Both the position numbers and the translations under genes were made by a program. Shown here piece by piece: positions 20,720-41,041 of a stretch of 64,000 nucleotides of DNA (positions are counted from its first letter, which is position 1; every line of letters begins with the position of its first letter). The DNA lies in IMG/VR virus record IMGVR_UViG_3300017735_002163, positions 19,377-83,376 of that record, one strand, 5' to 3'. The notes below the pieces were generated by a model. It had not been told where the DNA came from. It searched no databases and was given only the letters and a program-made list of their open reading frames with translations. This stretch comes from a virus.

Positions 20720-21258
20720 ATTTTTAACCTATAATCTATTAGTCCTGTTATTTGCATTGTATACCTTGGTATATAACCTAAGTTTGCAACCGTGTGTATT
20801 ACGCCAGGGAAAATAAAAGTATAATCCCCTTTGTTATAGTTATCAAAAGACTCGTCATCTATATTTAACCAATGTCCGAGTTGATGATCTTGCAAGAATA
20901 TATTTATTCTAACAAGTTCTAAATTTTCTAAAGTATCTTGATTATCTTTCAAGTATTGCTTTAGTCTATACATCGAATCCACATGTGGTGGAATAAATGT
21001 TCCTGTTGTTAATTTGTTTAAAGTAATTTGTTTGTGTTGTACCCAATCAAACTTATTACAAACATCCATAGCCCACTGTGGGCAGTCTTCTCCAAAGCAC
21101 TGATATAAATGTGCAGAACCTATTGGATATGTTGGTTCAGGTACATCTAAAGTTTTCCATAAACCGTTTGCTTCATCGGTGTCTGTGCTTTCAGGGAAAA
21201 CAGTATTGTTAAGCATTTCGTCGGTGACAAAATCAATATTAACATTACCTTTAATCAC
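20716..21258 (-). CDS. 2OG-Fe(II) oxygenase-like (aspartyl hydroxylase/cupin type)
   Basis: 180 aa with a double-stranded beta-helix pattern. IPPHVDSMYRLKQYL gives the first metal motif H-x-D, GDYTFIFPGVIHTVANLGYI the distal His, and the following PRYTMQITG an Arg where 2-oxoglutarate is usually bound. Between them, LVRINIFLQDHQLGHWLNID forms the core strands. It resembles the small 2OG hydroxylases found in marine phage genomes. The start is GTG at 21258, overlapping the amidinotransferase gene by 8 nt. It may hydroxylate the product of this operon or an unrelated protein. Confidence 0.72.
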   Translation of the reverse strand: MIKGNVNIDFVTDEMLNNTVFPESTDTDEANGLWKTLDVPEPTYPIGSAHLYQCFGEDCPQWAMDVCNKFDWVQHKQITLNKLTTGTFIPPHVDSMYRLKQYLKDNQDTLENLELVRINIFLQDHQLGHWLNIDDESFDNYNKGDYTFIFPGVIHTVANLGYIPRYTMQITGLIDYRLKI

Positions 21259-22303: not shown

Positions 22304-22308
22304 GCTAC

Positions 22309-22316
22309 TATTTATT
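22309..22316 (-). promoter_or_regulatory. late box AATAAATA, 5 nt before ATG (leaderless type)
   Basis: AATAAATA-GTAGC-ATG on the minus strand, partly overlapping the stop codon of the aminotransferase-like gene. It provides a second late start inside the biosynthetic operon. Confidence 0.68.
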
Positions 22317-24312: not shown

Positions 24313-24783
24313 ATGTTTTTTGGAAAAGATACAAAATTAGATAGGGAGGCTGTTTTCGAACAGTTAAAAATAGACGAAGGAGTAGTAAATGAAATTTACC
24401 ACGATCATCTCGGATATCCGACTTTTGGTGTGGGTCACTTGGTATTGGAGTCAGATCCTGAGCACGGAGCAGAAATTGGCACTCCGGTTTCAGAAGAAAG
24501 AGTACGAGAGTGCTTTGAAAAAGACCTCGACACCGCAATTAGCGAGTGTGAATTGCTATACGAAGCAGGGGTATTTGGAGATTTACCAGACGAAGTCCAG
24601 CAGATCCTGGTCAATATGATGTTTAATATGGGCAGGACAAGACTAAGTAAGTTTAAGAAAATGCATGCCGGAATACTTGAAGGGGATTGGAAGGAAGCGG
24701 CCAAGGAAGGCAGAGATTCAAGATGGCATAAACAAGTTACTAATCGTGCTGAAAGATTAATGGAAAGATTAGAGAACGTATAA
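24313..24783 (+). CDS. T4-type lysozyme (GH24 muramidase)
   Basis: Cleaves peptidoglycan. 156 aa (T4 lysozyme is 164). The catalytic triad of T4 (Glu11, Asp20, Thr26) is conserved as Glu22 in KIDEGVV, Asp31 in YHDHLGYP and Thr37 in PTFGVGH. The C-terminal domain has the usual VNMMFNMG and RWHKQVTNRAERLMERL helices. No signal peptide is visible, so as a free endolysin it would need a holin; candidates are the two small membrane proteins at 35951-36564. A GGAGAAAA ribosome site precedes the start. It lies between gp14 and gp15, so a virion-associated role is also possible. Confidence 0.93.
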   Translation: MFFGKDTKLDREAVFEQLKIDEGVVNEIYHDHLGYPTFGVGHLVLESDPEHGAEIGTPVSEERVRECFEKDLDTAISECELLYEAGVFGDLPDEVQQILVNMMFNMGRTRLSKFKKMHAGILEGDWKEAAKEGRDSRWHKQVTNRAERLMERLENV

Positions 24784-27456: not shown

Positions 27457-29514
27457 TTATTTACTTGTAGCAATAAATATTCCATCCCAATCTTTTGGAA
27501 GTGTTTGAGTCTTTTGAAATTCGCAACGCTCAATCCACATATCATAATAACCTTTCATCTTGCCATCAAAATGCGTCTCTAATAATTTACACAATTTAAT
27601 TGCTCTATCAAACTCTTGGTTTCTATAATGTGTATGCATTGCATTATGCATCTCTTTAGACTTAGCATGTTTATCTGCTTTATAATCAAGCACAGTGTAT
27701 ATTTCAATGCCTATTGTTTTACCTTTAACTGCCAAGTCATCAACTTTTAAATAAAAGAATTCGTTTTTAGTTTTGTGATATGTACTACCACCGACTAATA
27801 GTAAGCACCCGTATTCCTTACACTTAGACTCAATTCGTGCGGCAGTTGATACAGCATCTCCAAGTACATCATAACTATGTCTGCTTGTAGAGCCCATCTC
27901 ACCGAGATAACCAACGCCAGTGTTAATGCCAGCCCCCATACCAATTGGAGGTCTTCCTTCTGCTGTGATCTTATCATTAAATTTCTCCACTGCTCTCAGC
28001 ATATCCAAACCTGTTTGCACTGCTGAGTGTTCATGCTTTGCATCATCGTTTGGTGCATTGTGTATATGCATACTTGCATCACCTATGTACTTGATAATCA
28101 TACCGTCTGCATCAAGTACAGGTTGTGTGATAGCATCCATATAACCATTCATTAGTTTTGTGAGTCCTTGTACATCATCTCCAAAACTTTCACCTAATGG
28201 TGTGAAGCCACGCAAGTCTGAGAAGCATATTGATATCTCTCGCTTCATGCCTTCTTTGATCAATGCAGGATTTTCTTGTAACATACGCACAACTGTGGGT
28301 GAACAATATCCTGCAAATTGCTTTTCTATTTCTTGTCTTAATTTAAACTGTATCCAGAAGTTGTTAAAACTTGCCTGTGTAAATATTAAAAATGTTGCTA
28401 TTGCAGGATATGTAGCATCAAATAAAACTAAGTTTGCTGTATAAGAATGTATAGTATAATAAGCAATAGACCCTATAATGCTTATTATACTAAACAATCC
28501 TGCCCATACAGGCAACTTGTATATTGCTAAAGCAACTAATACCATGCTCAACAACGCACACACAAGCTCTGTAAGCGACGATAATTCTGATCTGGTAATG
28601 TTACTCCCATCTATAAAATTCTGTAGCATGTGTGCTTGTATATGCTGTGGATATATGTTGCCTATCGGAGTGGGCACCGGATTGGCAACACCTTCTGCAC
28701 TCACACCCACTATGACGAACTTGCCGCCCATATTCGGTAAACTGTCTGCACCAGTGTATTCTATTTCTTCGAATGTATTATTAAAACGTATGTATGCTGT
28801 TCCATCGCCTTGTGTTACTACAGGAACAAATGGTGGTATAGCAAATTCTTGTATTCCTATCTCACTTGTTTTAATCATGTAACTGGGTTGACCAGTTTGC
28901 ACTCTTAACATTTCAATTGCAAACGAAGGATATATTTTATCCGCTACTGTGATTGCAAGTGGGTATGTTCTTGTTTGATTATCTGGTTGTGGTGCTGATG
29001 CATTAATACCAATACCAGATGCTACTGTTTCCAACTCTGCTATATTTGTTACCAGATTTTTCCAAGTCAATAAGTGTTGCTGAGCCGGGCTCGGGCCTAT
29101 TGTACCAGTCCCTATATGCGGGCCGGAACTCCTCACCCCTTTGGAACTTGGGGTCTGGGATAAAACTATTCCGTTTCCTTTTATCCATGATGCAAAGACT
29201 TCGTCTCCTCCAAAACGATCTACTTCAGGGAACATTAATGTAAAACCTACTATCCCTTGATTTTTTTGTCTTATGTCGTATATCATTTGTGCATAAGACT
29301 GCCTGGGAAATGGATACTGGCCTAAAGCATCTAAACTTTTTTCACCGAGATTAATTATAACTACTTCGTTACTTTGTTTTGTTTCGTCAAGTTGTTGGTA
29401 ATAATCAAATGTCTGCGAACGCAAACTTTGTAGTGGTGTAGGATCTGATATTCTCAAACCAAGTAATAAGCATATTGTTACTGCTACTGCCCAGCCGCTG
29501 TATAACCATTTCAT
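27457..29514 (-). CDS. CHASE2-domain class III adenylate cyclase
   Basis: 685 aa: N-terminal membrane anchor (WLYSGWAVAVTICLLLGLRI), an extracytoplasmic CHASE2 sensor domain to about residue 300 (SLRSQTFDYYQQLDETKQ, PFPRQSYAQMIYDIR, GKFVIVGVSAEGVANPVPTP), two or three membrane helices at about 310-390, then the cyclase domain at about 425-610. ICFSDLRGFTPL and IIKYIGDASM give the two metal Asp residues. Lys in IIKYIGD and Asp in SYDVLGD predict ATP as substrate. The usual Asn of GDxVNxAxR is Ser here (GDAVSTAARIE), though the Arg is kept, so activity may be reduced. It probably senses the periplasm and makes cAMP; partner candidate is the FecR protein. Confidence 0.9.
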   Translation of the reverse strand: MKWLYSGWAVAVTICLLLGLRISDPTPLQSLRSQTFDYYQQLDETKQSNEVVIINLGEKSLDALGQYPFPRQSYAQMIYDIRQKNQGIVGFTLMFPEVDRFGGDEVFASWIKGNGIVLSQTPSSKGVRSSGPHIGTGTIGPSPAQQHLLTWKNLVTNIAELETVASGIGINASAPQPDNQTRTYPLAITVADKIYPSFAIEMLRVQTGQPSYMIKTSEIGIQEFAIPPFVPVVTQGDGTAYIRFNNTFEEIEYTGADSLPNMGGKFVIVGVSAEGVANPVPTPIGNIYPQHIQAHMLQNFIDGSNITRSELSSLTELVCALLSMVLVALAIYKLPVWAGLFSIISIIGSIAYYTIHSYTANLVLFDATYPAIATFLIFTQASFNNFWIQFKLRQEIEKQFAGYCSPTVVRMLQENPALIKEGMKREISICFSDLRGFTPLGESFGDDVQGLTKLMNGYMDAITQPVLDADGMIIKYIGDASMHIHNAPNDDAKHEHSAVQTGLDMLRAVEKFNDKITAEGRPPIGMGAGINTGVGYLGEMGSTSRHSYDVLGDAVSTAARIESKCKEYGCLLLVGGSTYHKTKNEFFYLKVDDLAVKGKTIGIEIYTVLDYKADKHAKSKEMHNAMHTHYRNQEFDRAIKLCKLLETHFDGKMKGYYDMWIERCEFQKTQTLPKDWDGIFIATSK

Positions 29515-29534: not shown

Positions 29535-30251
29535 TCAGTCAGCAAATGCTCGTTCGAGCATGAAGTCGCCCATTTCGCCAGTGTTTCCTTCTTCCCAATT
29601 TAAATATGAAAAACGCTCTCTGCATTCTTTATTAAGTGAGGGAGAACCGCAAACCATAACAGCATCAGTTTCTTTGGTTAAAGGTGAACCGAGAACTGGT
29701 TCAATGTGATTCCAAAACCTGCCTTGCCTAAAATAGTTTTCTCTGGTTACAGAAGGAATGTATAAAAATGGCATCATACCTGATATATCTTCCATGCTGT
29801 CCTTGTATGTAAGTTCTGCTACTTCTCTTACAGTGTGGAACAAATAGACGTTGTCGAACCTATCGTATGTTGCAGGGTCTTTAGCAATGCTTACAAACGG
29901 TGCTATGCCTGTTCCTGTTGCTAACATTACTAAATTCTTTTTGGGTAATAAGTAATCACAAACTAAACTACCTGTAGTTTTTGGACCTACTAATATATCG
30001 TCACCTATTTTAATATTTTGCAATTTACTTGTGAGAGGGCCATCTTGAACTTTAATACTGAGGAACTCTAAGTGGTCATCATAATTAGTGCTTACAATAC
30101 TGTATGCTCTCATTATTTTTTTAGGTTCGAGCTCTAATCCTATCATAGCAAACTCTCCGTTTTTAAAACGGAAGGTTTTATCTCTTGTAGTTTTAAAAGA
30201 AAATAAGCGATCGCTGTAGTGTGTGATTTCAGTAACTTGCTCTTTATTCAT
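29535..30251 (-). CDS. ferredoxin/flavodoxin-NADP reductase
   Basis: 238 aa from the ATG at 30251; a longer frame from 30284 would read through the late box. It has the FAD motif RAYSIVS near residue 50, the NADP-binding GTGIAPF near 110, the CGSP motif (VMVCGSPSLNKECRERF) and the short C-terminal tail MLERAFAD of bacterial Fpr-type enzymes. It exchanges electrons between NADPH and ferredoxin or flavodoxin. No ferredoxin gene is visible in the window, so it would use a host partner. Possible uses are radical SAM and oxygenase chemistry or host redox control. Confidence 0.9.
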   Translation of the reverse strand: MNKEQVTEITHYSDRLFSFKTTRDKTFRFKNGEFAMIGLELEPKKIMRAYSIVSTNYDDHLEFLSIKVQDGPLTSKLQNIKIGDDILVGPKTTGSLVCDYLLPKKNLVMLATGTGIAPFVSIAKDPATYDRFDNVYLFHTVREVAELTYKDSMEDISGMMPFLYIPSVTRENYFRQGRFWNHIEPVLGSPLTKETDAVMVCGSPSLNKECRERFSYLNWEEGNTGEMGDFMLERAFAD

Positions 30252-30256
30252 GTAGA

Positions 30257-30264
30257 TATTTATT
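30257..30264 (-). promoter_or_regulatory. late box AATAAATA, 5 nt before ATG (leaderless type)
   Basis: AATAAATA-TCTAC-ATG on the minus strand. It fixes the FNR start at 30251. Confidence 0.7.
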
Positions 30265-30265
30265 A

Positions 30266-30784
30266 CTATCTGTTCTTGGAGCATTCTTTTCTGGCACGAC
30301 TCCAGACATGAAAATTGTTTGCCACAATAGCGGCCATAAAATAATTTGCACCAGCGAAATCCTCGTCTGTTAAAACAGTTCGTTTGGTACCGATAAACAT
30401 AGCCGGTATTATAACTACTGATTTTAAAAATACTATTTCATGTAACTCAGGCTTTTTATCCAGTAGCGGATTTGCTTCCTCAATACAATCATACTTTACT
30501 GCTTCAACTGTGTTGTATATATCTAACAACTGAAATGCTGTAAACATTGCCCAGGATAATGGCGAAGCAGGTTCTTTCAGTGGTGGTAGATCTAAAGTGA
30601 TGGCTGGCGGGTATTCGTATTCGAATGTTGCTTGTCGAACTTCCGCTAAAACTTCTTTGCTATAGCAACACCCATGGCCATTGTTTATAAAAAATATTTG
30701 CTCAGGAGAAAGATTTGCTGGGAGATCTGTTGCGTAACAGTTAAGAGAAAGTAGCGACAACATAATCATTGCCGCTAATTTCAT
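30266..30784 (-). CDS. secreted/membrane protein resembling DUF5658-type proteins, unknown
   Basis: 172 aa from the ATG at 30784, which has AAGGAG 8 nt upstream; a GTG further upstream is less likely. A signal peptide (KLAAMIMLSLLSLNCYA) is followed by a periplasmic part with a Cys pair (GHGCCYSKE) and a hydrophobic part with AFQLLDIYNTVEAVKYDC, EEANPLLDKKPELHEIVFLK and VVIIPAMFIG. The D..NT....EANPLL pattern recalls DUF5658-like membrane proteins, but the match is by eye. Its start codon overlaps the end of the -1 frame extension described at 30784-30903 (TAATG). Confidence 0.65.
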   Translation of the reverse strand: MKLAAMIMLSLLSLNCYATDLPANLSPEQIFFINNGHGCCYSKEVLAEVRQATFEYEYPPAITLDLPPLKEPASPLSWAMFTAFQLLDIYNTVEAVKYDCIEEANPLLDKKPELHEIVFLKSVVIIPAMFIGTKRTVLTDEDFAGANYFMAAIVANNFHVWSRARKECSKNR

Positions 30785-30903
30785 TATTCGCACTCCTTAG
30801 GATTACTCGAACAATAGTCTTTAATTTGTTTTATTAACATTTTAATATCATCCTCATTGTCCTGCTTATCTTTGCGATTAGATAACAGGCTTAATCCTTT
30901 TTT
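30784..30903 (-). CDS. candidate -1 frameshift extension of the lipoprotein gene
   Basis: Near its end the lipoprotein frame reads CCA AAA AAG, that is A AAA AAG, the classic -1 slippery heptamer (30903-30897). Slipping there opens 37 further codons ending at TAA 30786-30784: GLSLLSNRKDKQDNEDDIK.. to CSSNPKECE. The frame has no ATG, GTG or TTG before its middle and a TGA closes it just upstream of the slippery site. Its stop overlaps the next gene's ATG as TAATG and contains that gene's ribosome site, which is the normal geometry of translated neighbours. Alternatively only the last 18 codons (from an internal ATG) are translated, or the site is chance. Confidence 0.4.
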   Translation of the reverse strand, partial: KKGLSLLSNRKDKQDNEDDIKMLIKQIKDYCSSNPKECE

Positions 30904-31175
30904 GGTGCTTCTGGTTCTTTTTGTAGTTCGTCAGTTTGTTTGTCAACTTCGGTTGCGACAGTTTCTACAACACCTTGTGCAGTGTTAATAGTTACGTCTG
31001 CAATTGCTTTTGCATCGTTAGTTACTGCAACTGCCATTGTGGCGGCTCCGCCAACAACGCTGTCCACAGTACCTGTGACAATCTCTGTTCCTGCATTCCA
31101 GGCCCCTCCAACTGAGGCGCACCCTACAGTGCCTAAACAAAGTACCGCTACGAAGAACTTAATATGTGTATTCAT
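30891..31175 (-). CDS. small lipoprotein of the curli-linked block
   Basis: 94 aa from the ATG at 31175, which has GGAG 6 nt upstream; an upstream start at 31199 lacks a ribosome site. The signal FFVAVLCLGTVGC ends in a lipobox with Cys19 as lipidated residue. The mature part has alternating small residues (GTEIVTGTVDSVVGGAATMA, VTNDAKAIADVTINTAQGV) typical of short amphipathic outer-membrane lipoproteins, then a charged Glu/Lys tail. The end carries a slippery A-run. No family name is assigned. Confidence 0.7.
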   Translation of the reverse strand: MNTHIKFFVAVLCLGTVGCASVGGAWNAGTEIVTGTVDSVVGGAATMAVAVTNDAKAIADVTINTAQGVVETVATEVDKQTDELQKEPEAPKKD

Positions 31176-31221
31176 ATTATCTCCATGGTTAAATAGCATG
31201 CCAACTGCAATGCTACACTAT

Positions 31222-31229
31222 TATTTATC
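31222..31229 (-). promoter_or_regulatory. late box GATAAATA before the lipoprotein gene
   Basis: GATAAATA on the minus strand 47 nt before the ATG at 31175, in the gap after the 102-aa membrane gene; the leader contains a GGAG ribosome site. Confidence 0.6.
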
Positions 31230-31235
31230 TGAAAG

Positions 31236-31544
31236 TTAGATGCCGTGGCTGTTAAAAGGACGATCTCCTGCTAAACTGTGTTGATCGTGTAGGTGTAATT
31301 CGTAGGCCAAGATATCTTTGGTATTTTGGCAGTCGGTAGTGTGCAGTAGTTTTAATATTTCCATTCTGTTTGCTTCTTCTATTTGATGTACTACGTCACA
31401 CCACATATAAAATACTGCAAATATACTTGGCACAATGATAATATAAAATACTAACCATGGGAAAAAGAAAGTGATAATTAAAACGTGTACGCCTATGACT
31501 GATAGTGAATATATCTTGAGACTATTGAGCCATTTACTTAGCAT
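31236..31544 (-). CDS. small inner-membrane protein, unknown
   Basis: 102 aa. The N-terminal half is one or two membrane helices (SLSVIGVHVLIITFFFPWLV, FYIIIVPSIFAVFYMW); the C-terminal half is soluble and His-rich (ILAYELHLHDQHSLAGDRP). The start overlaps the preceding small gene by 11 nt, indicating coupling. No family is recognised. Neighbouring genes suggest an envelope role connected with the curli-like module or the cyclase. Confidence 0.6.
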   Translation of the reverse strand: MLSKWLNSLKIYSLSVIGVHVLIITFFFPWLVFYIIIVPSIFAVFYMWCDVVHQIEEANRMEILKLLHTTDCQNTKDILAYELHLHDQHSLAGDRPFNSHGI

Positions 31545-31701
31545 CGACCTTCAGGTTTAGTTGTTCTATGTATGCATTGCTGTGCCAATAAGTATCTAAC
31601 ACAATGTCAGCCACAAGAGCAATTAACACCAATGTTAGTATTACAGAAAGGTATAGGTTTATACCCGCAGATATTTTTAACCACTTAATCATATGCTTCA
31701 T
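31534..31701 (-). CDS. small single-span membrane protein, unknown
   Basis: 55 aa from the ATG at 31701 (MKHMIKWLKISAGINLY), with one hydrophobic helix (LSVILTLVLIALVADIVLD) and a short polar tail ending LNLKVDAK. A longer frame from 31737 would pass through the sigma70 promoter and is rejected. The ATG follows TATAAT by 7 nt, so translation would be leaderless, or would use the second ATG at 31692. Function unknown. Confidence 0.55.
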   Translation of the reverse strand: MKHMIKWLKISAGINLYLSVILTLVLIALVADIVLDTYWHSNAYIEQLNLKVDAK

Positions 31702-31708
31702 AGGATAT

Positions 31709-31737
31709 ATTATAGTTGATATTGTAGGACTTGTCAA
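31709..31737 (-). promoter_or_regulatory. consensus sigma70 promoter inside the curli block
   Basis: Minus strand TTGACA (31737-31732), 17-nt spacer, TATAAT (31714-31709), perfect in both hexamers. It lies right after the second curlin gene and drives the small membrane protein genes, and perhaps the lipoprotein, from host sigma70. Confidence 0.88.
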
Positions 31738-31743
31738 CCGGTT

Positions 31744-32631
31744 TTAATTGCTACCGTTTACTGTTACTGAACATCCTGCTGTGTTATAACATACACCTGT
31801 TATACTGTAACTGCCGGCCGATGATGTCATGTTTTGATCTAAGTCAAGTGTGTAAGCACCAGTACCGTATGTTAAATCAATTGCCGCTGTTGCGTTATTG
31901 CCACCACGTTGATTAACATCAACACTATGCCCGTCACCATCTAACACAATGTCTGCCCATTTAACACCACCGTTGCCTCGTTGATATAACACCACATCAT
32001 TGTAATCACCTGTTATCTCTATAAAGCCATCGTGTCCTGATTTGCCTAACTGCCTGTGGTCTACATCATTGTAGTCACCTGTTATAATGTTTGCCAAATG
32101 ATGAGGACCTGCGTTAGTACCGCCTGACGATCTGTTAGTATCTGTTTGGCTACTTGCTAAAGTATTGTTGGAGCCATCTATGGTCCAATATGCTTCGTGG
32201 CCGCCTTCTTCGTCTATGTCAAGATTGCCTGTTAAATGTTTACCTTGCCACACTTTGAGATCATTATTACTACCAGTTGCATCTACTTTTGCAAAGTTAT
32301 CGTTGCCGCCATTGCCTTGAAATAAATCAAACGTGTTGTTACTGCCATTTAAGTTACCTTCAAATAAATGACTGTAGCCTTGCTGATAAAATGTTAAGTT
32401 ATTAGACGCACCAAGTAATTGACTATTGATGTCTATGCCTTGGATTACATTGTCGTATCCATCTTGTGTTACCGTTAGAGTAAGATTGTCACCTGCTTGG
32501 TCAATGAGAATAATGTTGTCTGCATTTGCTGTCATAGGCATTAATAAAAACATGCCCAGTATAATATATCCCAATACTAAAAGAGGGGTATCTTTTGGTT
32601 TCATTTCGTTTAGTTTTTTATCTATGTTCAT
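31744..32631 (-). CDS. curlin-repeat (CsgA/CsgB-like) secreted protein
   Basis: 295 aa. After an N-terminal hydrophobic signal (LLVLGYIILGMFLLMPMTANA) come seven or more imperfect repeats of the curlin type, with the Q-x-G(-x)-N signature: LTVTQDGYDN, NLTFYQQGYSH, FDLFQGNGGND, LKVWQGKH, VVLYQRGNGG, VDVNQRGGNN. Spacing is about 22-45 residues, somewhat irregular compared with E. coli CsgA. Such repeats form amyloid fibre strands. The C-terminus has two cysteines (GVCYNTAGCSV), unusual for curlins. It belongs to the same transcript as the CsgG and CsgF genes and is the likely secreted substrate. Confidence 0.8.
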   Translation of the reverse strand: MNIDKKLNEMKPKDTPLLVLGYIILGMFLLMPMTANADNIILIDQAGDNLTLTVTQDGYDNVIQGIDINSQLLGASNNLTFYQQGYSHLFEGNLNGSNNTFDLFQGNGGNDNFAKVDATGSNNDLKVWQGKHLTGNLDIDEEGGHEAYWTIDGSNNTLASSQTDTNRSSGGTNAGPHHLANIITGDYNDVDHRQLGKSGHDGFIEITGDYNDVVLYQRGNGGVKWADIVLDGDGHSVDVNQRGGNNATAAIDLTYGTGAYTLDLDQNMTSSAGSYSITGVCYNTAGCSVTVNGSN

Positions 32632-32632
32632 A

Positions 32633-33820
32633 TTAACCTTGTGTTTGTCTTATGTATATATTTATACCTGAACAATCATTTACACATATAACGTTAGTTC
32701 TATTCTCTATGTCTGTTTCAAGTCTTGCATTACTGCCAACTGGCACTTTAACACTGATAGTACCATTAACTTCTCTGTAGAACCATATAAATCCAGAACG
32801 ATCTATTATGGTATTAAATTGTGTTTTTGGATCAAACCCTGATGCTAATGTACCTGTTATTATATCAACGCCTTGTTGTCCTTCTGTTTTTTCTGACAAC
32901 ACTGCAAGTTTATCTGCTTCGTCTAATATTTCTAATAAATCCTGTAAAAAATCAACACCTAATATGTCAACATCTAATTCACTGAATTCTAAGTCTATGC
33001 TATCTTCATTTTGATCGTCGAGCAAATTTTCTTCTAAGAAATCTATATCGAGATCACTGAATGCTAAGTAGTCAATGCCCTTTCTTGCTTCTATTTGTTG
33101 TTCTTCTGCTTCTGTGATTTCTGCTGGTTCACTTACAATAAACATGTTGTCTATCATATTTAAATTTAAATCTTGTATAACCACTGGCTGAGTTGGCGGT
33201 GTTTCAAACGTGCTTACCATTACTGCTTGATAGGCTTCTTCTAATACAACTGTTCCGCCATCATTAGTAACTGTGATAGCACCGGACGGTCTACACCCTT
33301 CTTCTAATTTTACCTTGTCTGTGCAATTTGCATCTGGCAATAGTATAACTAAACTCCTGCCTAATTCATCTACTGTGGTTGTAAAATCTGTTCCACGCAC
33401 ACCAATTGTTGCTGTGGGAGTTTGTATGGCTATGTTTTCTTTTGGTACAAGTCCTAATCCGCCTGTGGCAAATCTTGCTGTGCCTGACACAAAATTCATT
33501 GCCATTTTACTTTTGCTTGGATCGGGGTCGTAGACATACTCATTGATTACTATCAACGTATTTTCTGTCAGACTGACCTGTGTTTTATCTACGAATTCAA
33601 TTTTAAGTCTACCTGCTGTAGTTTCTACATTGTCCATACTAACAATTGTAGAATCTAAAACTGCAGACAGTTTTTCACCAGATGTTCGTTCTATACTACC
33701 CGGATTTCCAGTCTGCTCAAATACGCCGCCTATCCTTTCAGCGGCGCTTGAGTTAGACAAAAACGAAAACAGTACAACAAAACTAATCTTTCTGAGTAAT
33801 GCTAACTGTTGCGTTTTCAC
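32633..33820 (-). CDS. FecR-domain secreted protein
   Basis: 395 aa from a GTG at 33820 that overlaps the upstream curlin gene by 38 nt. A signal peptide (ISFVVLFSFLSNSSAAE) is followed by a FecR domain at about residues 35-200: GSIERTSGEKL, AGRLKIEFVDKTQVSLTENT, SGTARFATGGLG and IQTPTATIGVRGTDFTTTVD. The region after 210 is acidic (EENLLDDQNEDSIDLEFSE). FecR-type periplasmic proteins often occur beside CHASE2 cyclases or surface-fibre genes in bacteria. It could be a periplasmic sensor or scaffold linking curlin secretion with the cyclase, but there is no direct proof. Confidence 0.82.
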   Translation of the reverse strand: MKTQQLALLRKISFVVLFSFLSNSSAAERIGGVFEQTGNPGSIERTSGEKLSAVLDSTIVSMDNVETTAGRLKIEFVDKTQVSLTENTLIVINEYVYDPDPSKSKMAMNFVSGTARFATGGLGLVPKENIAIQTPTATIGVRGTDFTTTVDELGRSLVILLPDANCTDKVKLEEGCRPSGAITVTNDGGTVVLEEAYQAVMVSTFETPPTQPVVIQDLNLNMIDNMFIVSEPAEITEAEEQQIEARKGIDYLAFSDLDIDFLEENLLDDQNEDSIDLEFSELDVDILGVDFLQDLLEILDEADKLAVLSEKTEGQQGVDIITGTLASGFDPKTQFNTIIDRSGFIWFYREVNGTISVKVPVGSNARLETDIENRTNVICVNDCSGINIYIRQTQG

Positions 33821-34505
33821 TGTCTATATCTAAATCCATATGACCGTAGCATGAAGTTGCACCAGTGGCACATGTACCGGAACTTTGAATTAAATCAATG
33901 TCTCCGCCTGAACCGTCGTATACTACTTTCATGTACTGATCTGCACCATCAGTTTGGCTGGTTACAATATCGTTATTATCACCAGTTAGGTCAAAATTCC
34001 AAGTTGCATCATCGACTTCAATGTCAATGTCCCATACGTTGCTGTCACCTAAGATTGCTAAGTCGAAATCTAATCTTTCTGCACTTGCGGCTGATCCTAA
34101 GTCAAAGTCAAACGTATTTGAATCACCTTGAATTGTAGCGAGTATATTGCCTGTATCGGCTGAACCTGTGTCACCAACTTTGATGTCCCAGATATTACTG
34201 CTACCAGTAAAAGTCCAATCGTATGTACTGCTGTCTGCAGTTATACTACCAAAAAACTCATTACTGTTACCTATTTGGTCTAAATCGATATTCAATGATG
34301 AACCAACTATAGTTAGATCACTACTTTGATCTGTATCGCCGGCTATCTTGTTACCAAAACCTTGTTGTAAAATAGTTAAATTCAGTGTGTCACCAACTTG
34401 ATCAATTAAGATTTCATTATCAGTTGCACCTGCTGAATAAACTGCTCCACTAAAGGTCATTAACCCTACTACCAAACTTAATGCTGATAAAGTTTTATTC
34501 AACAT
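33783..34505 (-). CDS. curlin-repeat (CsgA/CsgB-like) secreted protein
   Basis: 240 aa with a standard signal peptide (LSALSLVVGLMTFSGAVYSA). The mature part begins with a motif nearly shared with the second curlin protein (NEILIDQVGDTLNLTILQQG versus DNIILIDQAGDNLTLTVTQD). It then carries repeats such as LNIDLDQIGNSN, GDSNTFDFDLG, GDSNVWDIDIE and GDNNDIVTSQTDG. The protein is very acidic. Two cysteines (GTCATGATSC) lie near the end. The start overlaps csgG by 11 nt, so secretion pore and substrate are co-translated. It could be the nucleator or a second fibre subunit. Confidence 0.8.
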   Translation of the reverse strand: MLNKTLSALSLVVGLMTFSGAVYSAGATDNEILIDQVGDTLNLTILQQGFGNKIAGDTDQSSDLTIVGSSLNIDLDQIGNSNEFFGSITADSSTYDWTFTGSSNIWDIKVGDTGSADTGNILATIQGDSNTFDFDLGSAASAERLDFDLAILGDSNVWDIDIEVDDATWNFDLTGDNNDIVTSQTDGADQYMKVVYDGSGGDIDLIQSSGTCATGATSCYGHMDLDIDSENATVSITQKD

Positions 34506-35412
34506 TTGTTTCTCCTATGTTTAAATTTTCTACAGGTGGGAGACTTTCAGCATCATTGCTGGTAATCGTCCAGTAACCTCTATCGTCACCTTGTTCGATG
34601 AGTGCAAGTACTGCCGCTTCCGTGGCGCTCCTTACTGCCCATGTCACACTTTCGTTAGAAGTAATTCCTGTTTCTAATTCTAATAATTTTGTATCCATGT
34701 CAAGAAAACGAAATACATCTCCTCCCATGCCTACACTAAGTATTGTCTTGTATGTCTGTACGTTAAGTATAACTTCGCCTGTTAAAGTACTAACAGCACG
34801 TAGACTAACAATAATGCTGTCTCGTCTGTATTGAGCACTTCCGCCGATACCTAAATATCTGGCTCCGTTACCTCCTGTTTCTATGTTACTATCGTACCCA
34901 ACTATACCGCCTTCAAGTAAAATACCCGCAAACAACATTGGTTGTAGTTTTTGGCTCTCTTTACCTGCTTTGGCATAATCGTCTCTGGTACTGCGGATAA
35001 TTTGTCTTTCTCTGACCAGGTTATCCAGACCTACTCCTCTTTCAACAACACGGAACCAAGTACCGTTTGCAGTCTCACCTGCGCCTGCCGCCTTAAGAGC
35101 ATCAATTAACAATGCTTTTGCACCCTGCGTTACTGCTGTGCTGAACAATGCTATATTGTCTTTTTGTTTTCTTTGACCTGTTAAGTCAGAGAACTGATAT
35201 ACTGCAACCACAGGCATTACTTCTGCAGGTGGTAACTGTCTTAATCTTTCATATGTTGGTAATTCGACTTGTTTTGGTTCTTCGACACACTCCATTACAT
35301 TGTCGTAACACCACTCGCCTGTTAATGCATTATTAGGCAATGACATTGATGCACACCCCGACATTATCGTGCTAAAAAGTAGTGTAGCAATTAGCGAACT
35401 ATAACTTTTCAT
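34495..35412 (-). CDS. csgG: CsgG, curli secretion channel lipoprotein
   Basis: 305 aa. A lipoprotein signal ends in MSGC with Cys20. The CsgG fold is unmistakable: VVAVYQFSDLTGQRK, ALFSTAVTQGAKALLIDALK, RVVERGVGLDNLVRERQIIR, GILLEGGIVGYDSN, GGNGARYLGIGGSAQYRRDS, VSTLTGEVILNVQTYKTIL, VFRFLDMDTKLLELETGI and ALIEQGDDRGYW. It forms the nonameric outer-membrane pore of type VIII secretion. Compared with E. coli, the constriction segment differs: Phe56 is kept in ALFSTAV, but Tyr51 and Asn55 are replaced and there is one extra residue. Confidence 0.95.
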   Translation of the reverse strand: MKSYSSLIATLLFSTIMSGCASMSLPNNALTGEWCYDNVMECVEEPKQVELPTYERLRQLPPAEVMPVVAVYQFSDLTGQRKQKDNIALFSTAVTQGAKALLIDALKAAGAGETANGTWFRVVERGVGLDNLVRERQIIRSTRDDYAKAGKESQKLQPMLFAGILLEGGIVGYDSNIETGGNGARYLGIGGSAQYRRDSIIVSLRAVSTLTGEVILNVQTYKTILSVGMGGDVFRFLDMDTKLLELETGITSNESVTWAVRSATEAAVLALIEQGDDRGYWTITSNDAESLPPVENLNIGETNVE

Positions 35413-35418
35413 ATTGTC

Positions 35419-35961
35419 TTATCCGCCGCCGATGGCAACTCCTACAGGTATATCTATTGTAGTCATTGTTCCGTCTGAGCTTACAATGGTTAGCCTAATT
35501 ATTTCTATGCCGTCATCTCCAACCATTCTTTCGTATGTGACTGTATTTCCTTCGATAGTGAACACACCATAGTCTGCTCCGTCTTCGTTACCGAACATAC
35601 TGTCTACTAACTGTCTACTAATTTGACTGTAAATTCTACTTTCTAAATTTCTCAAAAATTTATTAAGTGTTGAATTTTCTTCTTCACGCTGAATTCTTAA
35701 TAGCTCAGCGTCTATTTGATCTTTAATTTTGTCTTTACGACTTTTTTGTTGATTCTCAATGGTTAGGTAATGGGCGCCTGTTCCTACACCACTGAAACTT
35801 GGATTTTTAAATTTATGTACTAATTCGTCTGCTAATGCTAACGGACTCATGAATAATAGTCCTAACATTATACCGAATGCAAATGCTTTGAATAAATCAC
35901 TACCAGACCATATACGTGGTCCTACTTGCGATTTAAGTAACTCCCAATCTTTATCTCTCAT
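35419..35961 (-). CDS. csgF: CsgF-like curli assembly factor
   Basis: 180 aa from the ATG at 35961, which has AGAGGT upstream. A long N-region leads to the signal FAFGIMLGLLFMSPLALA. The mature start ELVHKFKNPSFSGVGTGAH matches E. coli CsgF (F-x-N-P-x-F), the segment that inserts into the CsgG constriction. LESRIYSQISRQLVDSMFG and FTIEGNTVTYERMVGDDGIE correspond to the C-terminal helix and strands. CsgF in E. coli exposes the nucleator at the cell surface. An extra charged insert (KSRKDKIKDQIDAELLRIQR) has no counterpart in E. coli. It is 6 nt upstream of csgG. Confidence 0.85.
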   Translation of the reverse strand: MRDKDWELLKSQVGPRIWSGSDLFKAFAFGIMLGLLFMSPLALADELVHKFKNPSFSGVGTGAHYLTIENQQKSRKDKIKDQIDAELLRIQREEENSTLNKFLRNLESRIYSQISRQLVDSMFGNEDGADYGVFTIEGNTVTYERMVGDDGIEIIRLTIVSSDGTMTTIDIPVGVAIGGG

Positions 35962-36268
35962 CTGTCTGTACCTCTGACTGTAGTGTGGCAAGAGCCTCTT
36001 TTTGCTTGGCTTCTTTTATTACCTTCTGTCTTTCTTTGTATTCTAAAACTACATTTACTTTTTGCTGTAGTCGTATCATATCCTGATCAAGCATTCGTGT
36101 TTGATCAATTACACGTATTAATGCCATATGCATTGTTTCTAATTCGGGGTCTATTTTCTCACCTATAAACCACCAAACATAATATATAAAATATCCTAAT
36201 CCTACACAAAGTACTATTGGAAAGCCAAATGTGTTAATTGCTTCAGCAATTCCATTCACATCTTCCAT
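35951..36268 (-). CDS. small membrane protein with coiled coil, holin-like
   Basis: 105 aa: one N-terminal membrane helix (FPIVLCVGLGYFIYYVWWFIG), then a coiled coil (MALIRVIDQTRMLDQDMIRL) and a charged Lys/Glu tail. The start is coupled to the preceding gene by TAATG with GGAGAG upstream; the end overlaps the CsgF start by 11 nt. Size and topology suit a class III-type holin or spanin-related protein, but also a membrane partner of the curli module. The phage lysozyme needs a holin and no other candidate is seen in this window. Confidence 0.6.
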   Translation of the reverse strand: MEDVNGIAEAINTFGFPIVLCVGLGYFIYYVWWFIGEKIDPELETMHMALIRVIDQTRMLDQDMIRLQQKVNVVLEYKERQKVIKEAKQKEALATLQSEVQTDER

Positions 36269-36564
36269 TAGTCTCTCCTTGCATCAATTTTGTTATCTTC
36301 TACAAAATTTTCTGCTCGTGCTACTCTGTCGATGTCAGGGCTTAGTTCAAGAGCACTACTTACAAGCAAGTCAATTTTCATCATCTCATTGCTCATTGTT
36401 CTGGCTCGATTTTCTAAACTATTACAAAATATAGTTAGAGTTTTTATTTGCCCTACTATGCCTTCAAGTATTTGTTTGATAACAAGGAATATGAAAAAAC
36501 CCATTACCATACTGCCGGCAATTGGTGCTCCAACTTCTGCTATTAATCCAAAAATTTCATTCAT
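36268..36564 (-). CDS. small membrane protein, holin-like
   Basis: 98 aa: an N-terminal membrane helix (APIAGSMVMGFFIFLVIKQIL), then an amphipathic coiled coil (LENRARTMSNEMMKIDLLVS) and a charged end. It has the same architecture as the next gene, with which it is translationally coupled, so the two may be paralogues working as a pair. It is the first gene after the late box at 36672-36679. Function is inferred from topology only. Confidence 0.6.
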   Translation of the reverse strand: MNEIFGLIAEVGAPIAGSMVMGFFIFLVIKQILEGIVGQIKTLTIFCNSLENRARTMSNEMMKIDLLVSSALELSPDIDRVARAENFVEDNKIDARRD

Positions 36565-36671: not shown

Positions 36672-36679
36672 TATTTATC
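36672..36679 (-). promoter_or_regulatory. late promoter GATAAATA of the curli-like operon
   Basis: GATAAATA on the minus strand, just downstream of the fibre terminator, 108 nt before the first ATG of the block at 36564. The transcript would run through the two membrane proteins, csgF, csgG, both curlin genes and the FecR gene. Confidence 0.65.
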
Positions 36680-36703: not shown

Positions 36704-36730
36704 AAAAAAAAGCACTCCGAAGAGTGCTTT
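36704..36730 (-). terminator. rho-independent terminator with UUCG loop
   Basis: Minus strand AAAGCACTC-TTCG-GAGTGCTTT followed by a T-run of eight. It ends the 1427-aa fibre gene. The hairpin is identical to the one after gp23 at 48442-48468. Confidence 0.95.
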
Positions 36731-36757: not shown

Positions 36758-39700
36758 TTATTGTAAGTTGATTAATGCTTCAACAACACCGTTACCATCT
36801 TCGTTTTCGCTAATTGCTTTACCGATGATTGTACCTGACTTAACGTTTTCTGGGTCAGCGCCTTTGGCTCTACCTGGAATACCTGATGTTACAAGTAAGT
36901 CACCTTTGCCAATTGGACCAACAACTTTAACTGGTACCCTTCCGCATAATGCTACTGGAGTTCCACCTGCTAATTCACTGTTCATCAAGTATGCTGGGTC
37001 TGTGGAAACAACACCTGCTACACGGTAATCTTCATCACCTGCACATTCTGTTATTTCTGCATCGCCACCAAACACAACAACTGTACCTGCATCATACACT
37101 GCATCTGCTGAATAGTTCTCAGCCAAATCCGCATATCTTGCCGTTGTTGCTGTTGCACTAACTACGCCAGCACTAAAGTTACCGGAACCGTCTCTGGCAA
37201 CCACTGTACTTGCTGTATTGGCTGATGTTGCGTTAACATTTAATGTAGCACTACCACTTGATGCGCCACCTGTTAAGTATGAACCTGCCACAACTGCTGT
37301 AATATCACCTACGTTGCCTGTTAGTCCACTTATGCGTCCTGTTACGTGATCGTATACGTCATTACCTGTTGGTATTGATGTGCCGCCGTTTGCAACTGCA
37401 CCAGTAGAAACACTTAATGTAACACTACCACTTGAACCGCCGCCACTTAAATGTGTACCTGCTGTAACACCAGTGATGTCACCAACGTTACTTGTCCAAC
37501 CGGAGTCATTGTTAAACTGACTTAGTTTAAATTCACCAATTGCTTTCTTTCTCTCAGCGCCTGAATCAAGTAAAATAAGTTCGTCATTAGCACCGCTAAC
37601 ATCTGCTGTCATATCAGTAAGTTCTGATAAGTCTAAAGTGATGCTTGGTGTACCTGAAGTACCTCCGCCGTCTAAACCTGTACCTACTGTAATACCTGTT
37701 AAGTAACCAGTGTCTGTTAAACTAATAACACCTGTTGAGCTGTTATATGTAACACCAGTTCCACCACTAACTAATCCTCTAACATGTGAATCGCTTAGTG
37801 CTAAACTAACACTACCACTTGATCCACCGCCAGTTAAACCGTTACCAGCACTTACGTTTGTTATATCACCAACTGTTGTTGAGTAACCGTATGCTTCAAT
37901 CTTATCAGCAACTGCTTTTGCTGTCATTAACACTGTGTCTGAATCACTAAATGCTTCTGAACTTAATTGTATTGCCGCTCCAGCAAAGTCACCAACTGTT
38001 AAATCTGGTAGTCTTGCACTTGCAATAGTACCTGATGCTATTTGACTTGCACCAATTGATATTGAAACTTCGCCACTTGCAGTTAAACGTCCTTTTGCAT
38101 CAACTGTAAATGTTGATACTGTGCCAGCGTCACCAAATGATCCAACTGATGCGGCTGTATCTGCTAATGCTAAACTAACACTACCACTTGAACCACCACC
38201 TGTTAAACCTGAGCCTGCACTTACGTTTGTTATATCACCAACTGTTGTTGAGTAACCATAACTTAGAATTTTATCTTGTACTGCCGCCGATGTCATTAAT
38301 GTTGTATCGTTATCTGCAAAACTTTCTGTGCTTAACTGAATTGTTGCTCCTGCAAATTCACTAATTGTTAAACCACTTACGTTTAATGTTGCTGTACCAC
38401 TTGTAGCACCGCCACTTAAACCAGTTCCTGCTACTACACCAGTAATAAAGTTTGGATCTGTTAGACTGATTACACCACTTGATAAAGTAATACCAGCACC
38501 ACCACTAAAGTGATTTCTAACTTGTGCCGCACTTGGACCTGTGTAACTAATAACACCTGTTGTGCTGTTGTATGCTAATGCACCATCACCACCGTTATCT
38601 GTTACAGAGATAGCACCTCTGGCGTCTGCGTCTGCATACATTGTAGGCTCACTATAACTTATAACACCTGTTGTGCTGTTATATGCTAAGTCACCACTTG
38701 CACTAATTGCCGCTCTTGCTCTTGCAGTTGTATGGTATTGATTAGTACCTTCTGATAAATTACTTGTGCTGTGATTAGCAATACTGCTAACTGTACCAGT
38801 TACATCACCAGTTACATCACCAGTTACATCACCAGTTACATTACCAACTACTGCGCCTCTAAATGTTGTAGCAACAAAATCTGTTGATACTGCCCATCTG
38901 TCGTTTGACTCGTCCCATAGTAACTGTACATTTGTAGCATCACCACGTTCAATTTCAATACCTGCATTGGCTGTAGGGGAACCTGATGCATTGTTGTTTA
39001 GAACGATGATGTTGTCATCAACTGTTAAAGTTTCTGTATTAACAGTAGTTTGTGTACCGTTAATTGTTAAGTTACCATTAACTATAATGTTGTCACTAAA
39101 TGTTTTAGCACCTGCTACTGTTTGAGTACCACTTGTTCTAACTACAGTATTATCTACTGAGAATGAACCGGAACTAACATCTAAGCCGTCACCTGCTGAT
39201 ACATGTGCTCTAACTTGCGCCGCACTTGGACCTGTGTAAGTAATTACACCAGTTGAGCTGTTATAAGCAAGACTTCCGTCTCCGCCTGCGTCAGTAACAC
39301 TAATTGCACTTCTGGCATCTGCATCTGCATACATAGTTGGGGTTGTATAAGACATAACACCTGTTGTGCTGTTATATGCTAAGTTGCCACCTGCACTAAT
39401 TGAAGCTCTTGCTAATGCATCAGTATACTGAGTGATAGTTGTTGCAATAGCACCGTCTGTTACAGTAATACCTGTACCAGCACTAATATGAGCTCTTACT
39501 TCTGAAGCACTTGGGCCTGTGTAAGTAATAACACCTGATGTGCTGTTGTATGCCAATGATCCGTCACCACCTGCATCTGTTACACTAATTAATCCTTTTG
39601 CATAGCTCTCATCAAGTGATATTTCGTCTGCATCAACAGTAATACCGTTGCCTTCACCAATGTTTAATGTAACTGCACCTGCTGTGCCGCCACCTGTTAA

Positions 39701-41041
39701 ACCTGATCCTGCGCCTACGCTTTCAATGTCACCTGCGTCATTAGTAAAACTAAATACACCAGTTGAGCTATCGTATGCTAAATCGCCACTTGCACTAAAG
39801 TGTGCTCTTGTCTCTGCCGCACTTGGTCCTGTGTAAGTAATTACACCAGTTGAACTATTGTATGCCGCACTACCATCACCACCTGCATCTGTTACACTAA
39901 TAAGTGCTCTTGCAGTTGAATCTGTAAGCATGTTTTGATAAGTTGTACCATCGTTTGTAAATGCCCATGAACCTTCTGACTCGTCCCATTTTAGGAATAC
40001 GTCTGCACTTGAGGCTCTGTCTACTTGGAAACCTGTGTCTAATGCACTACCAGTTCCAGCATTTAATAAAATAATTTCATCTGCAATTTCTAATGCACTA
40101 CCTGAACTTGTTAGTGTACCAGTAATTTCCATATTACCTGAGAATGTTTTGTTACCTGCTAACGTTTGGTTACCAGTTGTTCTCATTACAGTACTGTCAA
40201 CAGCAATTGTACCAGTACTAATATCAATACCTGATCCACCGTTAAAGTGAGCTCTTACCTCTGCGGCACTTGGACCTGTGTAAGTAATTACACCATTGTC
40301 TAATGCTAATGAGCCATCGCCGCCTGCATCAGTAACACTTAAGAAAGTTAATGCATCTACATAACCTTTGCTTGCCGCATCACCATCTGCTACTGGAGTA
40401 GAGATATTGTTAATATGGTTGCTGTCTAAATTAACATTTGAACCAAACTTAACACCACCTGCTGAAGTAATTGATTTGTTTGCTGTTAAAACAACATCTG
40501 TTTTCAGTTGGATGTCACCACCTGATGTTAATTCAATATCACCTGTTCCTGTTGAAACAATGCTAATATTTTGGTTGGCGTCTGCACTAAACTGAATAGT
40601 ACCTGAGTTATCAGATAATACTTGTTGTCCGTTAACGTATAAAGATCCCGGACCAACGTATATGTCTCGCCATTGTTTTGTTTCAGAACCTAAGTCGTAT
40701 GTAACGTCTGCATTAGGTATAATGTGTCCTGAGAACGCACCTCCACCTAAGAAACTTTGTACACCGCTTGTAAAAGTTGCTGAAGAAGTATCAAGTGCAA
40801 TAGTGGCCGATCCTGCGTCTGCTCCACCACTTAAACCTGAGCCTGCTACAACGGCAGTAATATCACCTGTTGCCGCCGCTACTACTTCTGAATTTTTTGC
40901 AAGTCTGTGACCACCTGCTGTTGTACCATCATGTACTATGACGGTATTGTTAGTTGTATCGATCGTAATCTCACCCGCTAATCCGGTAAAACTACCGTGT
41001 TGCGTCGAGGTACCTCGTCTTCTTTGAATTGCTGTTGCCAT
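36758..41041 (-). CDS. long tail fibre-type protein
   Basis: 1427 aa. The N-terminus AIQRRRGTSTQHGSFTGLAG, then GEITIDTTNNTVIVHDGTTA, is the head domain common in marine phage fibres. The middle is a long array of about 50-70 residue beta repeats of the type DAGGDGSLAYNSTTGVITY, TGPSAAEVRAH and GDITNVSAGSGLTGGGSSGS. The C-terminal 110 residues (from about 1310) form a conserved domain, ATTARYADLAENYSAD, STDPAYLMN, GRVPVKVVGPIGKGDLLVTS, shared with the 1605-aa protein and probably a trimerisation or chaperone domain. It has a late box and a GGGGAAAG ribosome site. It probably recognises the host. Confidence 0.85.
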   Translation of the reverse strand: MATAIQRRRGTSTQHGSFTGLAGEITIDTTNNTVIVHDGTTAGGHRLAKNSEVVAAATGDITAVVAGSGLSGGADAGSATIALDTSSATFTSGVQSFLGGGAFSGHIIPNADVTYDLGSETKQWRDIYVGPGSLYVNGQQVLSDNSGTIQFSADANQNISIVSTGTGDIELTSGGDIQLKTDVVLTANKSITSAGGVKFGSNVNLDSNHINNISTPVADGDAASKGYVDALTFLSVTDAGGDGSLALDNGVITYTGPSAAEVRAHFNGGSGIDISTGTIAVDSTVMRTTGNQTLAGNKTFSGNMEITGTLTSSGSALEIADEIILLNAGTGSALDTGFQVDRASSADVFLKWDESEGSWAFTNDGTTYQNMLTDSTARALISVTDAGGDGSAAYNSSTGVITYTGPSAAETRAHFSASGDLAYDSSTGVFSFTNDAGDIESVGAGSGLTGGGTAGAVTLNIGEGNGITVDADEISLDESYAKGLISVTDAGGDGSLAYNSTSGVITYTGPSASEVRAHISAGTGITVTDGAIATTITQYTDALARASISAGGNLAYNSTTGVMSYTTPTMYADADARSAISVTDAGGDGSLAYNSSTGVITYTGPSAAQVRAHVSAGDGLDVSSGSFSVDNTVVRTSGTQTVAGAKTFSDNIIVNGNLTINGTQTTVNTETLTVDDNIIVLNNNASGSPTANAGIEIERGDATNVQLLWDESNDRWAVSTDFVATTFRGAVVGNVTGDVTGDVTGDVTGTVSSIANHSTSNLSEGTNQYHTTARARAAISASGDLAYNSTTGVISYSEPTMYADADARGAISVTDNGGDGALAYNSTTGVISYTGPSAAQVRNHFSGGAGITLSSGVISLTDPNFITGVVAGTGLSGGATSGTATLNVSGLTISEFAGATIQLSTESFADNDTTLMTSAAVQDKILSYGYSTTVGDITNVSAGSGLTGGGSSGSVSLALADTAASVGSFGDAGTVSTFTVDAKGRLTASGEVSISIGASQIASGTIASARLPDLTVGDFAGAAIQLSSEAFSDSDTVLMTAKAVADKIEAYGYSTTVGDITNVSAGNGLTGGGSSGSVSLALSDSHVRGLVSGGTGVTYNSSTGVISLTDTGYLTGITVGTGLDGGGTSGTPSITLDLSELTDMTADVSGANDELILLDSGAERKKAIGEFKLSQFNNDSGWTSNVGDITGVTAGTHLSGGGSSGSVTLSVSTGAVANGGTSIPTGNDVYDHVTGRISGLTGNVGDITAVVAGSYLTGGASSGSATLNVNATSANTASTVVARDGSGNFSAGVVSATATTARYADLAENYSADAVYDAGTVVVFGGDAEITECAGDEDYRVAGVVSTDPAYLMNSELAGGTPVALCGRVPVKVVGPIGKGDLLVTSGIPGRAKGADPENVKSGTIIGKAISENEDGNGVVEALINLQ

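What the first reader, a model, noticed from the sequence alone, without database searches (positions are those of the whole stretch)
31744..36564. Curli-like secretion module with its own amyloid-repeat substrates in a phage genome
Seen: CsgG (lipobox Cys20, GGNGARYLGIGG, VRERQIIR motifs), CsgF (FKNPSFSG, matching the segment that enters CsgG) and two secreted proteins with curlin-type Q-x-G-x-N repeats, overlapping in one operon with a late box upstream. Known: in bacteria CsgG is the outer-membrane pore, CsgF the surface factor and curlin repeats build amyloid. I recall reports of csgG/csgF homologues in marine myoviruses, so the pore pair alone may not be new. The pore plus two substrate-like proteins plus FecR and cyclase genes is the striking part. 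Ideas: coat the infected cell to hold virions or exclude competitors, build fibres that help adhesion of progeny to hosts, or use CsgG as a controlled outer-membrane pore in lysis.
Basis: partly seen in the sequence, partly recalled or inferred. Interest (0 to 1): 0.92.

Follow-up and report, generated by a model that had tools for sequence, protein, structure and literature searches.

The report
Phage-carried curli fibre secretion operon
A marine jumbo-type phage carries a complete, late-expressed operon that looks able to make an infected bacterium export curli-like sticky fibres; the operon was already known from other ocean phages, but it has not been reported in this phage lineage, and its second fibre protein is repeatedly swapped between phages and sometimes carries a PA14 (probable sugar-binding) domain.

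Summary
31744-36564 (-) encodes CsgG (Pfam 3e-47), CsgF (8e-16), two secreted curlin-repeat proteins (C2 3e-7; C1 weak alone, but its family matches) and a FecR-domain protein. Two small membrane proteins lie upstream and a CHASE2 cyclase downstream, and late-promoter boxes precede the parts.

The module is not new. The same gene order was published for pelagiphages (Wittmers 2022, PMC9599517) and lies annotated in phage Melnitz.

Added here:
(1) This phage is not a pelagimyophage. Its capsid and terminase are 68/57% identical to jumbo phage PA5oct and 35/31% to HTVC008M, so a third phage lineage carries the module.
(2) Gene order is nearly invariant in about 150 phage loci. None of 68 bacterial curli loci has the small pair, FecR or cyclase by phage-derived profiles.
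(3) The small pair, in the position of the published 'histidine kinases', has no kinase domain.
(4) The second curlin is replaced as a cassette while its neighbours stay up to 95% identical. Some alleles, including that of cultured HTVC008M, carry a PA14 domain.

Most likely: late in infection CsgG:CsgF exports C1 fibre and exchangeable C2 adhesin, altering adhesion or exclusion at the infected cell surface. Amyloid formation and benefit are untested.

The parts
36268..36564 (-). sm1: 98-aa protein, one N-terminal hydrophobic segment then a helical, coil-like tail; phage-specific module partner, called here 'small pair' gene 1
   Evidence: PHROG 18771 8e-23; no kinase domain; linked to CsgG
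35951..36268 (-). sm2: 105-aa paralogue of sm1
   Evidence: PHROG 18771 1.5e-23; alignment A4
35419..35991 (-). CsgF; likely true start near 35961 (homologue L002 begins at the residue equivalent to MRDKDWELLK); N-terminal tail before the signal peptide
   Evidence: PF10614 8.1e-16; homologue N-termini
34495..35412 (-). CsgG, outer-membrane pore lipoprotein (lipobox Cys20)
   Evidence: PF03783 3.4e-47; E. coli CsgG 4uv3 9.9e-47; Cys20 invariant
33783..34505 (-). C1: first curlin-repeat protein, 240 aa, putative main fibre subunit
   Evidence: Curlin_rpt 0.032 alone; 21 of 53 homologues match; invariant Q-x-G-(x-x-N) positions; AlphaFold2 pLDDT 85.6 all-beta
32633..33820 (-). FecR-domain protein with N-terminal signal-like segment, inferred periplasmic
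   Evidence: PF04773 6.2e-12; PHROG 37870
31744..32631 (-). C2: second curlin-repeat protein, 295 aa; conserved extended signal region and C-terminal C-x(5)-C cap, exchangeable body
   Evidence: Curlin_rpt 3.3e-7, four stretches; alignment A3; cassette exchange
27457..29514 (-). CHASE2-domain class III nucleotide cyclase, last gene of the module in relatives, here separated by inserted small genes
   Evidence: PF05226 2.1e-32, PF00211 1.4e-16; adjacent to C2 in relatives
36672..36679 (-). late-promoter-like box GATAAATA at the head of the operon
   Evidence: enrichment test
36704..36729 (-). terminator-like hairpin with T run that ends the upstream tail-fibre gene and separates it from the module
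   Evidence: read directly from the sequence
32659..32666 (-). late-promoter-like box TATAAATA 35 nt before C2
29520..29527 (-). late-promoter-like box GATAAATA 13 nt before the cyclase

Best explanation
This is a complete phage-borne type VIII (curli) secretion module in a T4-like, probably jumbo, marine phage. Late in infection the operon is transcribed from phage late promoters. CsgG forms the outer-membrane pore and CsgF docks into it. Two curlin-repeat proteins are exported through Sec and then CsgG: C1, conserved and inferred to be the fibre body, and C2, inferred to be a displayed adhesive or recognition subunit whose body is exchanged between phages while its export signal and C-terminal cap stay constant. 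FecR (periplasmic) and the CHASE2 cyclase are inferred to form an envelope-sensing pair that turns substrate or pore status into a cyclic-nucleotide signal. The small membrane pair is inferred to be a phage-specific inner-membrane partner, not a histidine kinase. The most likely benefit is a changed surface of the infected cell: holding neighbouring hosts and progeny together, or shutting out competing phages. Shown here: gene content, homology, synteny, selection, exchange of C2, PA14 fusion in relatives. Inferred: secretion, amyloid, timing, signalling, benefit.
For: Profile matches of pore, CsgF, substrates, FecR and cyclase. CsgF keeps the F-(K/R)-N-P-x-F-x-G segment that aligns with E. 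coli CsgF. CsgG constriction residues fall within bacterial variation, and Phe56 is kept in the window lineage. Gene order is nearly invariant over about 150 phage loci: CsgF>CsgG 153/153, CsgG>curlin 141/141, CsgG>FecR 99/99, FecR>second curlin 47/48, small pair in 150/152 (some contigs appear twice). dN/dS is 0.03-0.23 wherever dS is measurable, with several comparisons saturated. Late boxes stand before the operon head, C2 and the cyclase. C2 exchange: L006 and L007 share 91% DNA identity over 9.35 kb up to the C2 signal region and 86% from the C2 C-terminal cap on, while the C2 body gives no DNA match and 36% protein identity overall. The pattern recurs in L043/L055 and other clades, 31 of 58 close but non-independent pairs. 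PA14 domain fused to curlin repeats in C2 of L031, L049, L078 and cultured HTVC008M, all above the Pfam cut-off.
Against: No amyloid or fibre has been observed from any phage module; PMC9004378 saw no clumping of Melnitz-infected cells in culture. C1 alone is below the Pfam cut-off. Foldseek of both models found no significant solved structure, only weak beta-solenoid-type hits at E > 0.1. No CsgE was found in the 83-kb record, which may be a fragment. The host is unknown, so host CsgE-like factors cannot be excluded. FecR-cyclase signalling rests on co-occurrence and domain knowledge only.
Confidence: 0.68

Rival explanations
1. CsgG(F) is used as a controlled outer-membrane pore for lysis timing or depolarisation (the pinholin/secretin idea of PMC9004378); the curlin-repeat proteins are secondary or plug the pore.
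For: No CsgE found; late-type promoter; small one-TM proteins upstream, sm2 with a weak holin-family hit at E 0.054; a lysozyme gene directly upstream of the small pair in L177.
Against: A curlin gene follows CsgG in every testable locus (141/141) and both curlins are under purifying selection. A pure pore would not explain exchange of the C2 body or its PA14 fusion. The phage has its own lysozyme elsewhere (24313-24783).
Confidence: 0.15
2. CsgG serves nutrient or cofactor uptake during infection (siderophores, vitamins), with FecR as an iron-linked regulator (suggested in PMC9599517).
For: FecR-domain gene always present; a ferredoxin/ferric-reductase-type oxidoreductase gene nearby (29535-30284).
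Against: The FecR protein here has a signal-like N-terminus and matches only the FecR domain; no sigma factor or TonB receptor was seen in the module; substrates are conserved; the oxidoreductase is absent from most relatives.
Confidence: 0.07
3. The curlin proteins end up in or on virions (adhesion fibres of the particle) rather than on the infected cell.
For: Module directly follows a tail-fibre gene in this lineage; late-type box.
Against: Both curlins have export signals and are coupled to an outer-membrane exporter. In L006/L007 C2 is exchanged while the fibre 3' end stays within the 91%-identical stretch. HTVC008M has the module next to other genes.
Confidence: 0.1

Closest known systems
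Pelagiphage T8SS module, Wittmers et al. 2022 (PMC9599517); Zaragoza-Solas et al. 2020 (PMC7029224)
   Same: Same genes and order: one or two small genes, CsgF, CsgG, curlin, FecR, second curlin, cyclase; no CsgE
   Different: Carrier here is a phage related to jumbo Arenbergviridae, not pelagimyo- or podophages; CsgG lies in a separate branch of the phage CsgG clade; extra genes inserted before the cyclase; small pair has no histidine-kinase domain
Methylophilales phage Melnitz module (PMC9004378; MZ577097)
   Same: Identical order with curlins, FecR and cyclase annotated in the record; cyclase 51% identical to the window's
   Different: CsgG only 41.5% identical; that paper treats it as a substrate-less pore, whereas the record itself annotates two curlin-repeat proteins
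Bacterial curli / type VIII secretion system (E. coli csgBAC-csgDEFG; alphaproteobacterial variants)
   Same: CsgG pore, CsgF, curlin-repeat substrates
   Different: No CsgE found in the record; FecR, CHASE2 cyclase and small pair added and absent from 68 bacterial loci by phage profiles; C2 exchanged as a cassette

Membership tests
Type VIII (curli) secretion system | CsgG outer-membrane lipoprotein pore | tested here: met
   PF03783 3.4e-47; invariant lipobox Cys; E. coli CsgG structure sequence 9.9e-47
Type VIII (curli) secretion system | CsgF with N-terminal segment that enters CsgG | tested here: met
   PF10614 8.1e-16; FKNPSFSG aligned to E. coli FRNPNFGG, though the single-sequence PDB match is weak, E 0.046
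Type VIII (curli) secretion system | Secreted curlin-repeat substrate(s) | tested here: met
   C2 3.3e-7; C1 by family: 21 of 53 members and invariant repeat residues
Type VIII (curli) secretion system | CsgE periplasmic adaptor (not universal outside Gammaproteobacteria) | tested here: not met
   No PF10627 match in the 83-kb record at E <= 10; the record may be a fragment
Type VIII (curli) secretion system | Substrates form extracellular amyloid | not testable with these tools
   Only all-beta models; Foldseek gave no significant match
Viral (pelagiphage-type) T8SS module | Order small gene(s)-CsgF-CsgG-curlin-FecR-curlin-cyclase | tested here: met
   Window; HTVC008M and Melnitz; about 150 loci
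Viral (pelagiphage-type) T8SS module | Upstream 'histidine kinase' gene(s) as named in PMC9599517 | tested here: not met
   Genes in that position are about 85-110 aa with one hydrophobic segment; no kinase domain in 34 members. Identity with the paper's 'HK' rests on position only
Viral (pelagiphage-type) T8SS module | CsgG in the single phage clade | tested here: met
   All phage CsgG on one side of a branch with SH-aLRT 99 (quick tree)
Pelagimyophages (Kyanoviridae) as carrier | Capsid/terminase closest to HTVC008M | tested here: not met
   MCP 68% and TerL 57% to PA5oct versus 35% and 31% to HTVC008M

The most novel reading that the evidence does not exclude
The second curlin (C2) of marine phage curli modules is an allelically exchanged, surface-displayed adhesin, in some phages tipped with a PA14 lectin-like domain. 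It would be carried on an amyloid anchor and exported by a phage-specific version of the curli machine, giving each phage its own binding or exclusion specificity for the infected cell surface, independently of its tail fibres.
Probability: 0.35. Interest if true: 0.82.

Novelty: new member of a known kind. Interest (0 to 1): 0.55.

Why it matters
The module is reported to be widespread in ocean viromes (PMC9599517), yet no one knows what it does. Finding it in a third, distantly related phage lineage shows that it is kept across very different phages. Exchange of C2 and its PA14 fusions turn a vague 'curli AMG' into a testable adhesin hypothesis, directly checkable in two cultured phages (HTVC008M and Melnitz). 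Correcting the 'histidine kinase' label removes a misleading regulatory model.

Tried and rejected
Host contamination: rejected, the module is flanked by phage genes and repeated in many viral contigs. Direct capture of a whole bacterial operon including FecR and cyclase: not supported by the nearest 68 bacterial loci, though profiles from phage FecR may miss distant FecR. Pelagimyophage identity: rejected. 'Histidine kinase' for the small pair: no domain match. Foldseek of the two curlin models against the PDB: no significant hit. CsgE search: none. I did not establish the host.
Full report
OBSERVATION. The seven - strand genes from 36564 down to 31744 are real and most overlap their neighbours. 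Pfam finds CsgG (3.4e-47), CsgF (8.1e-16), FecR (6.2e-12) and curlin repeats in C2 (3.3e-7); C1 alone is weak (0.032). C1 was tested further: across 53 homologues (22-77% identical to it) the curlin positions N30, Q36, G38, Q47, G49, N52, G79, N82, G101, N104, Q207 and Q238 are invariant, and 21 members match Curlin_rpt at 0.01 or better. For C2, 16 of 26 members match, best 7.1e-16, and its family profile finds the solved curlin-repeat protein 8c50 at 2.8e-6. AlphaFold2 models are all-beta (C1 mean pLDDT 85.6; C2 75.4). Foldseek gives no significant match; the weak top hits are largely beta-helix proteins, which is compatible with a solenoid but no proof. The cyclase at 27457-29514 is CHASE2 + class III catalytic domain.

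EXPRESSION. A terminator hairpin follows the tail-fibre gene and is itself followed by GATAAATA at 36679. Of 34 NATAAATA boxes in the window, 21 lie 8-120 nt before a start codon, against 3.2 on average (maximum 8) for 20 permuted motifs. They stand before T4-like structural genes and also before the operon head, C2, a small lipoprotein gene and the cyclase. Late expression is inferred, not measured.

WHAT IS KNOWN. csgG and csgF in HTVC008M and uncultured pelagimyophages, with 'sibling capture' proposed: PMC7029224. Melnitz, with a lysis-pore idea: PMC9004378. The full module with CsgA/B, FecR, cyclase and 'HK' in Podo- and Myoviridae pelagiphages: PMC9599517. GenBank records of HTVC008M and Melnitz show the same order. 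The finding is therefore a member of a published kind.

WHAT IS NEW HERE: CARRIER. The window is part of an 83,376-base viral record. Its capsid protein is 68%, terminase 57%, portal 51%, gp46/47 50-55% identical to PA5oct (Arenbergviridae, 287 kb) but only 35/31/31% (capsid/terminase/portal) to HTVC008M. Viral contigs of up to 250 kb with the same module carry 86-91% identical capsid proteins. In a quick maximum-likelihood tree all phage CsgG lie on one side of a 99%-supported branch, with the window's branch apart from the pelagiphage/Melnitz branch. Some long branches make details unsure.

WHAT IS NEW HERE: MODULE INTEGRITY. In phage loci with enough sequence, CsgG follows CsgF in 153/153, a curlin follows CsgG in 141/141, FecR is downstream of CsgG in 99/99, a second curlin follows FecR in 47/48, and the small pair is present in 150/152 (two scans were pooled and a few contigs occur twice). 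A separate scan with the small pair as query found CsgG in 59 of the 60 loci with at least 3 kb downstream. None of the 68 nearest bacterial curli loci carries the small pair, FecR or cyclase by phage-derived profiles. dN/dS is 0.03-0.23 where synonymous change is not saturated.

SMALL PAIR. sm1 and sm2 are paralogous 98- and 105-aa proteins with one hydrophobic segment and a coil-like tail (alignment). No kinase domain appears in any of 34 members. A histidine kinase needs dimerisation and ATPase domains that do not fit in about 100 residues (general knowledge). I infer that these are the genes called 'HK' in PMC9599517, from position only.

C2 EXCHANGE. Window versus L015: C2 is 83% identical while the other genes compared are 49-67%. 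L006 versus L007: CsgF, CsgG, C1, FecR are 91-95% identical, C2 36%. At DNA level 91% identity runs over 9.35 kb into the C2 signal region, stops for about 870 bp, and resumes in the C-terminal cap. L043 versus L055 shows the same, and in all 31 of 58 close pairs have C2 below 55% (pairs are not independent, roughly five clades). The alleles keep a C-terminal C-x(4-5)-C cap. In several pelagiphage-type modules C2 has an N-terminal PA14 domain before the curlin repeats (L031 8e-9, L049 3e-8, L078 4e-7, HTVC008M 3e-6). None of the three phage papers mentions PA14, and no held paper combines PA14 domain, curlin and phage.

MECHANISM. Shown: gene content, order, selection, exchange, promoter-box enrichment. 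Inferred: C1 is the fibre body; C2 is the displayed, exchangeable adhesive or recognition part; CsgG:CsgF export both; FecR and the CHASE2 cyclase sense the envelope. Cyclase catalytic Asp and Lys residues are kept; the window-, Melnitz-, L064-, L078-, L080- and L090-type cyclases have Ser where the transition-state Asn is usual, so activity should be assayed. Rivals are a lysis pore, an uptake pore, or a virion component; the invariant presence and exchange of substrates argue against the first two.

LIMITS. Host unknown. No complex prediction was possible. The absence of FecR and cyclase from bacterial loci rests on phage-derived profiles and on the 80 best CsgG hits only. Identity with the paper's 'HK' is positional.

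Noticed in passing
35419-35991 and 31744-32631; L026, L028, L180, L192, L207: Conserved cytoplasmic tails precede the signal peptides: CsgF 'DW(E/K)LLKxQxGPxIWxGxDLFKAF', also found on a curlin in L026/L192/L195, and C2 'MNIDKKLNxMxPKDTPLL' in 15 curlins. They look like exchangeable extended export signals; function unknown.
   Followed up: partly
27457-29514: The cyclase belongs to a subtype shared with Melnitz, L064, L078, L080 and L090 (Ser for the usual transition-state Asn) and differs from the cyclases of its CsgG sisters, suggesting that the cyclase is also exchanged.
   Followed up: partly
29535-31737: Inserted genes between C2 and the cyclase: FAD/NAD oxidoreductase, DUF5658-like membrane protein, a small lipoprotein and small membrane proteins; they recur in sister phages.
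   Followed up: no
17880-23191: Cluster of B12-binding radical SAM protein, sugar-nucleotide-epimerase-like protein, amidinotransferase/ADI-like protein and others, possibly for a surface or small-molecule modification.
   Followed up: no
36758-41041: 1427-aa tail-fibre-like protein with an Mtd_N domain (PF18454) and repeated BppL_N (PF18338) matches.
   Followed up: no
L082-L088, L090, L097, L100, L111: Contigs binned as Saprospirales, Sphingobacteriales, Synechococcus, Rhodobacteraceae, Planctomycetaceae and Pelagibacter genomes carry the phage-type module and are probably phage contigs.
   Followed up: partly
L222:4001-8294: The only locus with the small pair and ample downstream sequence but no CsgG; a methyltransferase-like gene takes its place, with a cyclase further on in reverse.
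   Followed up: no
OR851715.1 (phages collection): A 1,499-base 'Salmonella phage S.Kent 1-2-1' record holds a CsgG 43.7% identical to the window's; possibly a stray bacterial fragment.
   Followed up: no
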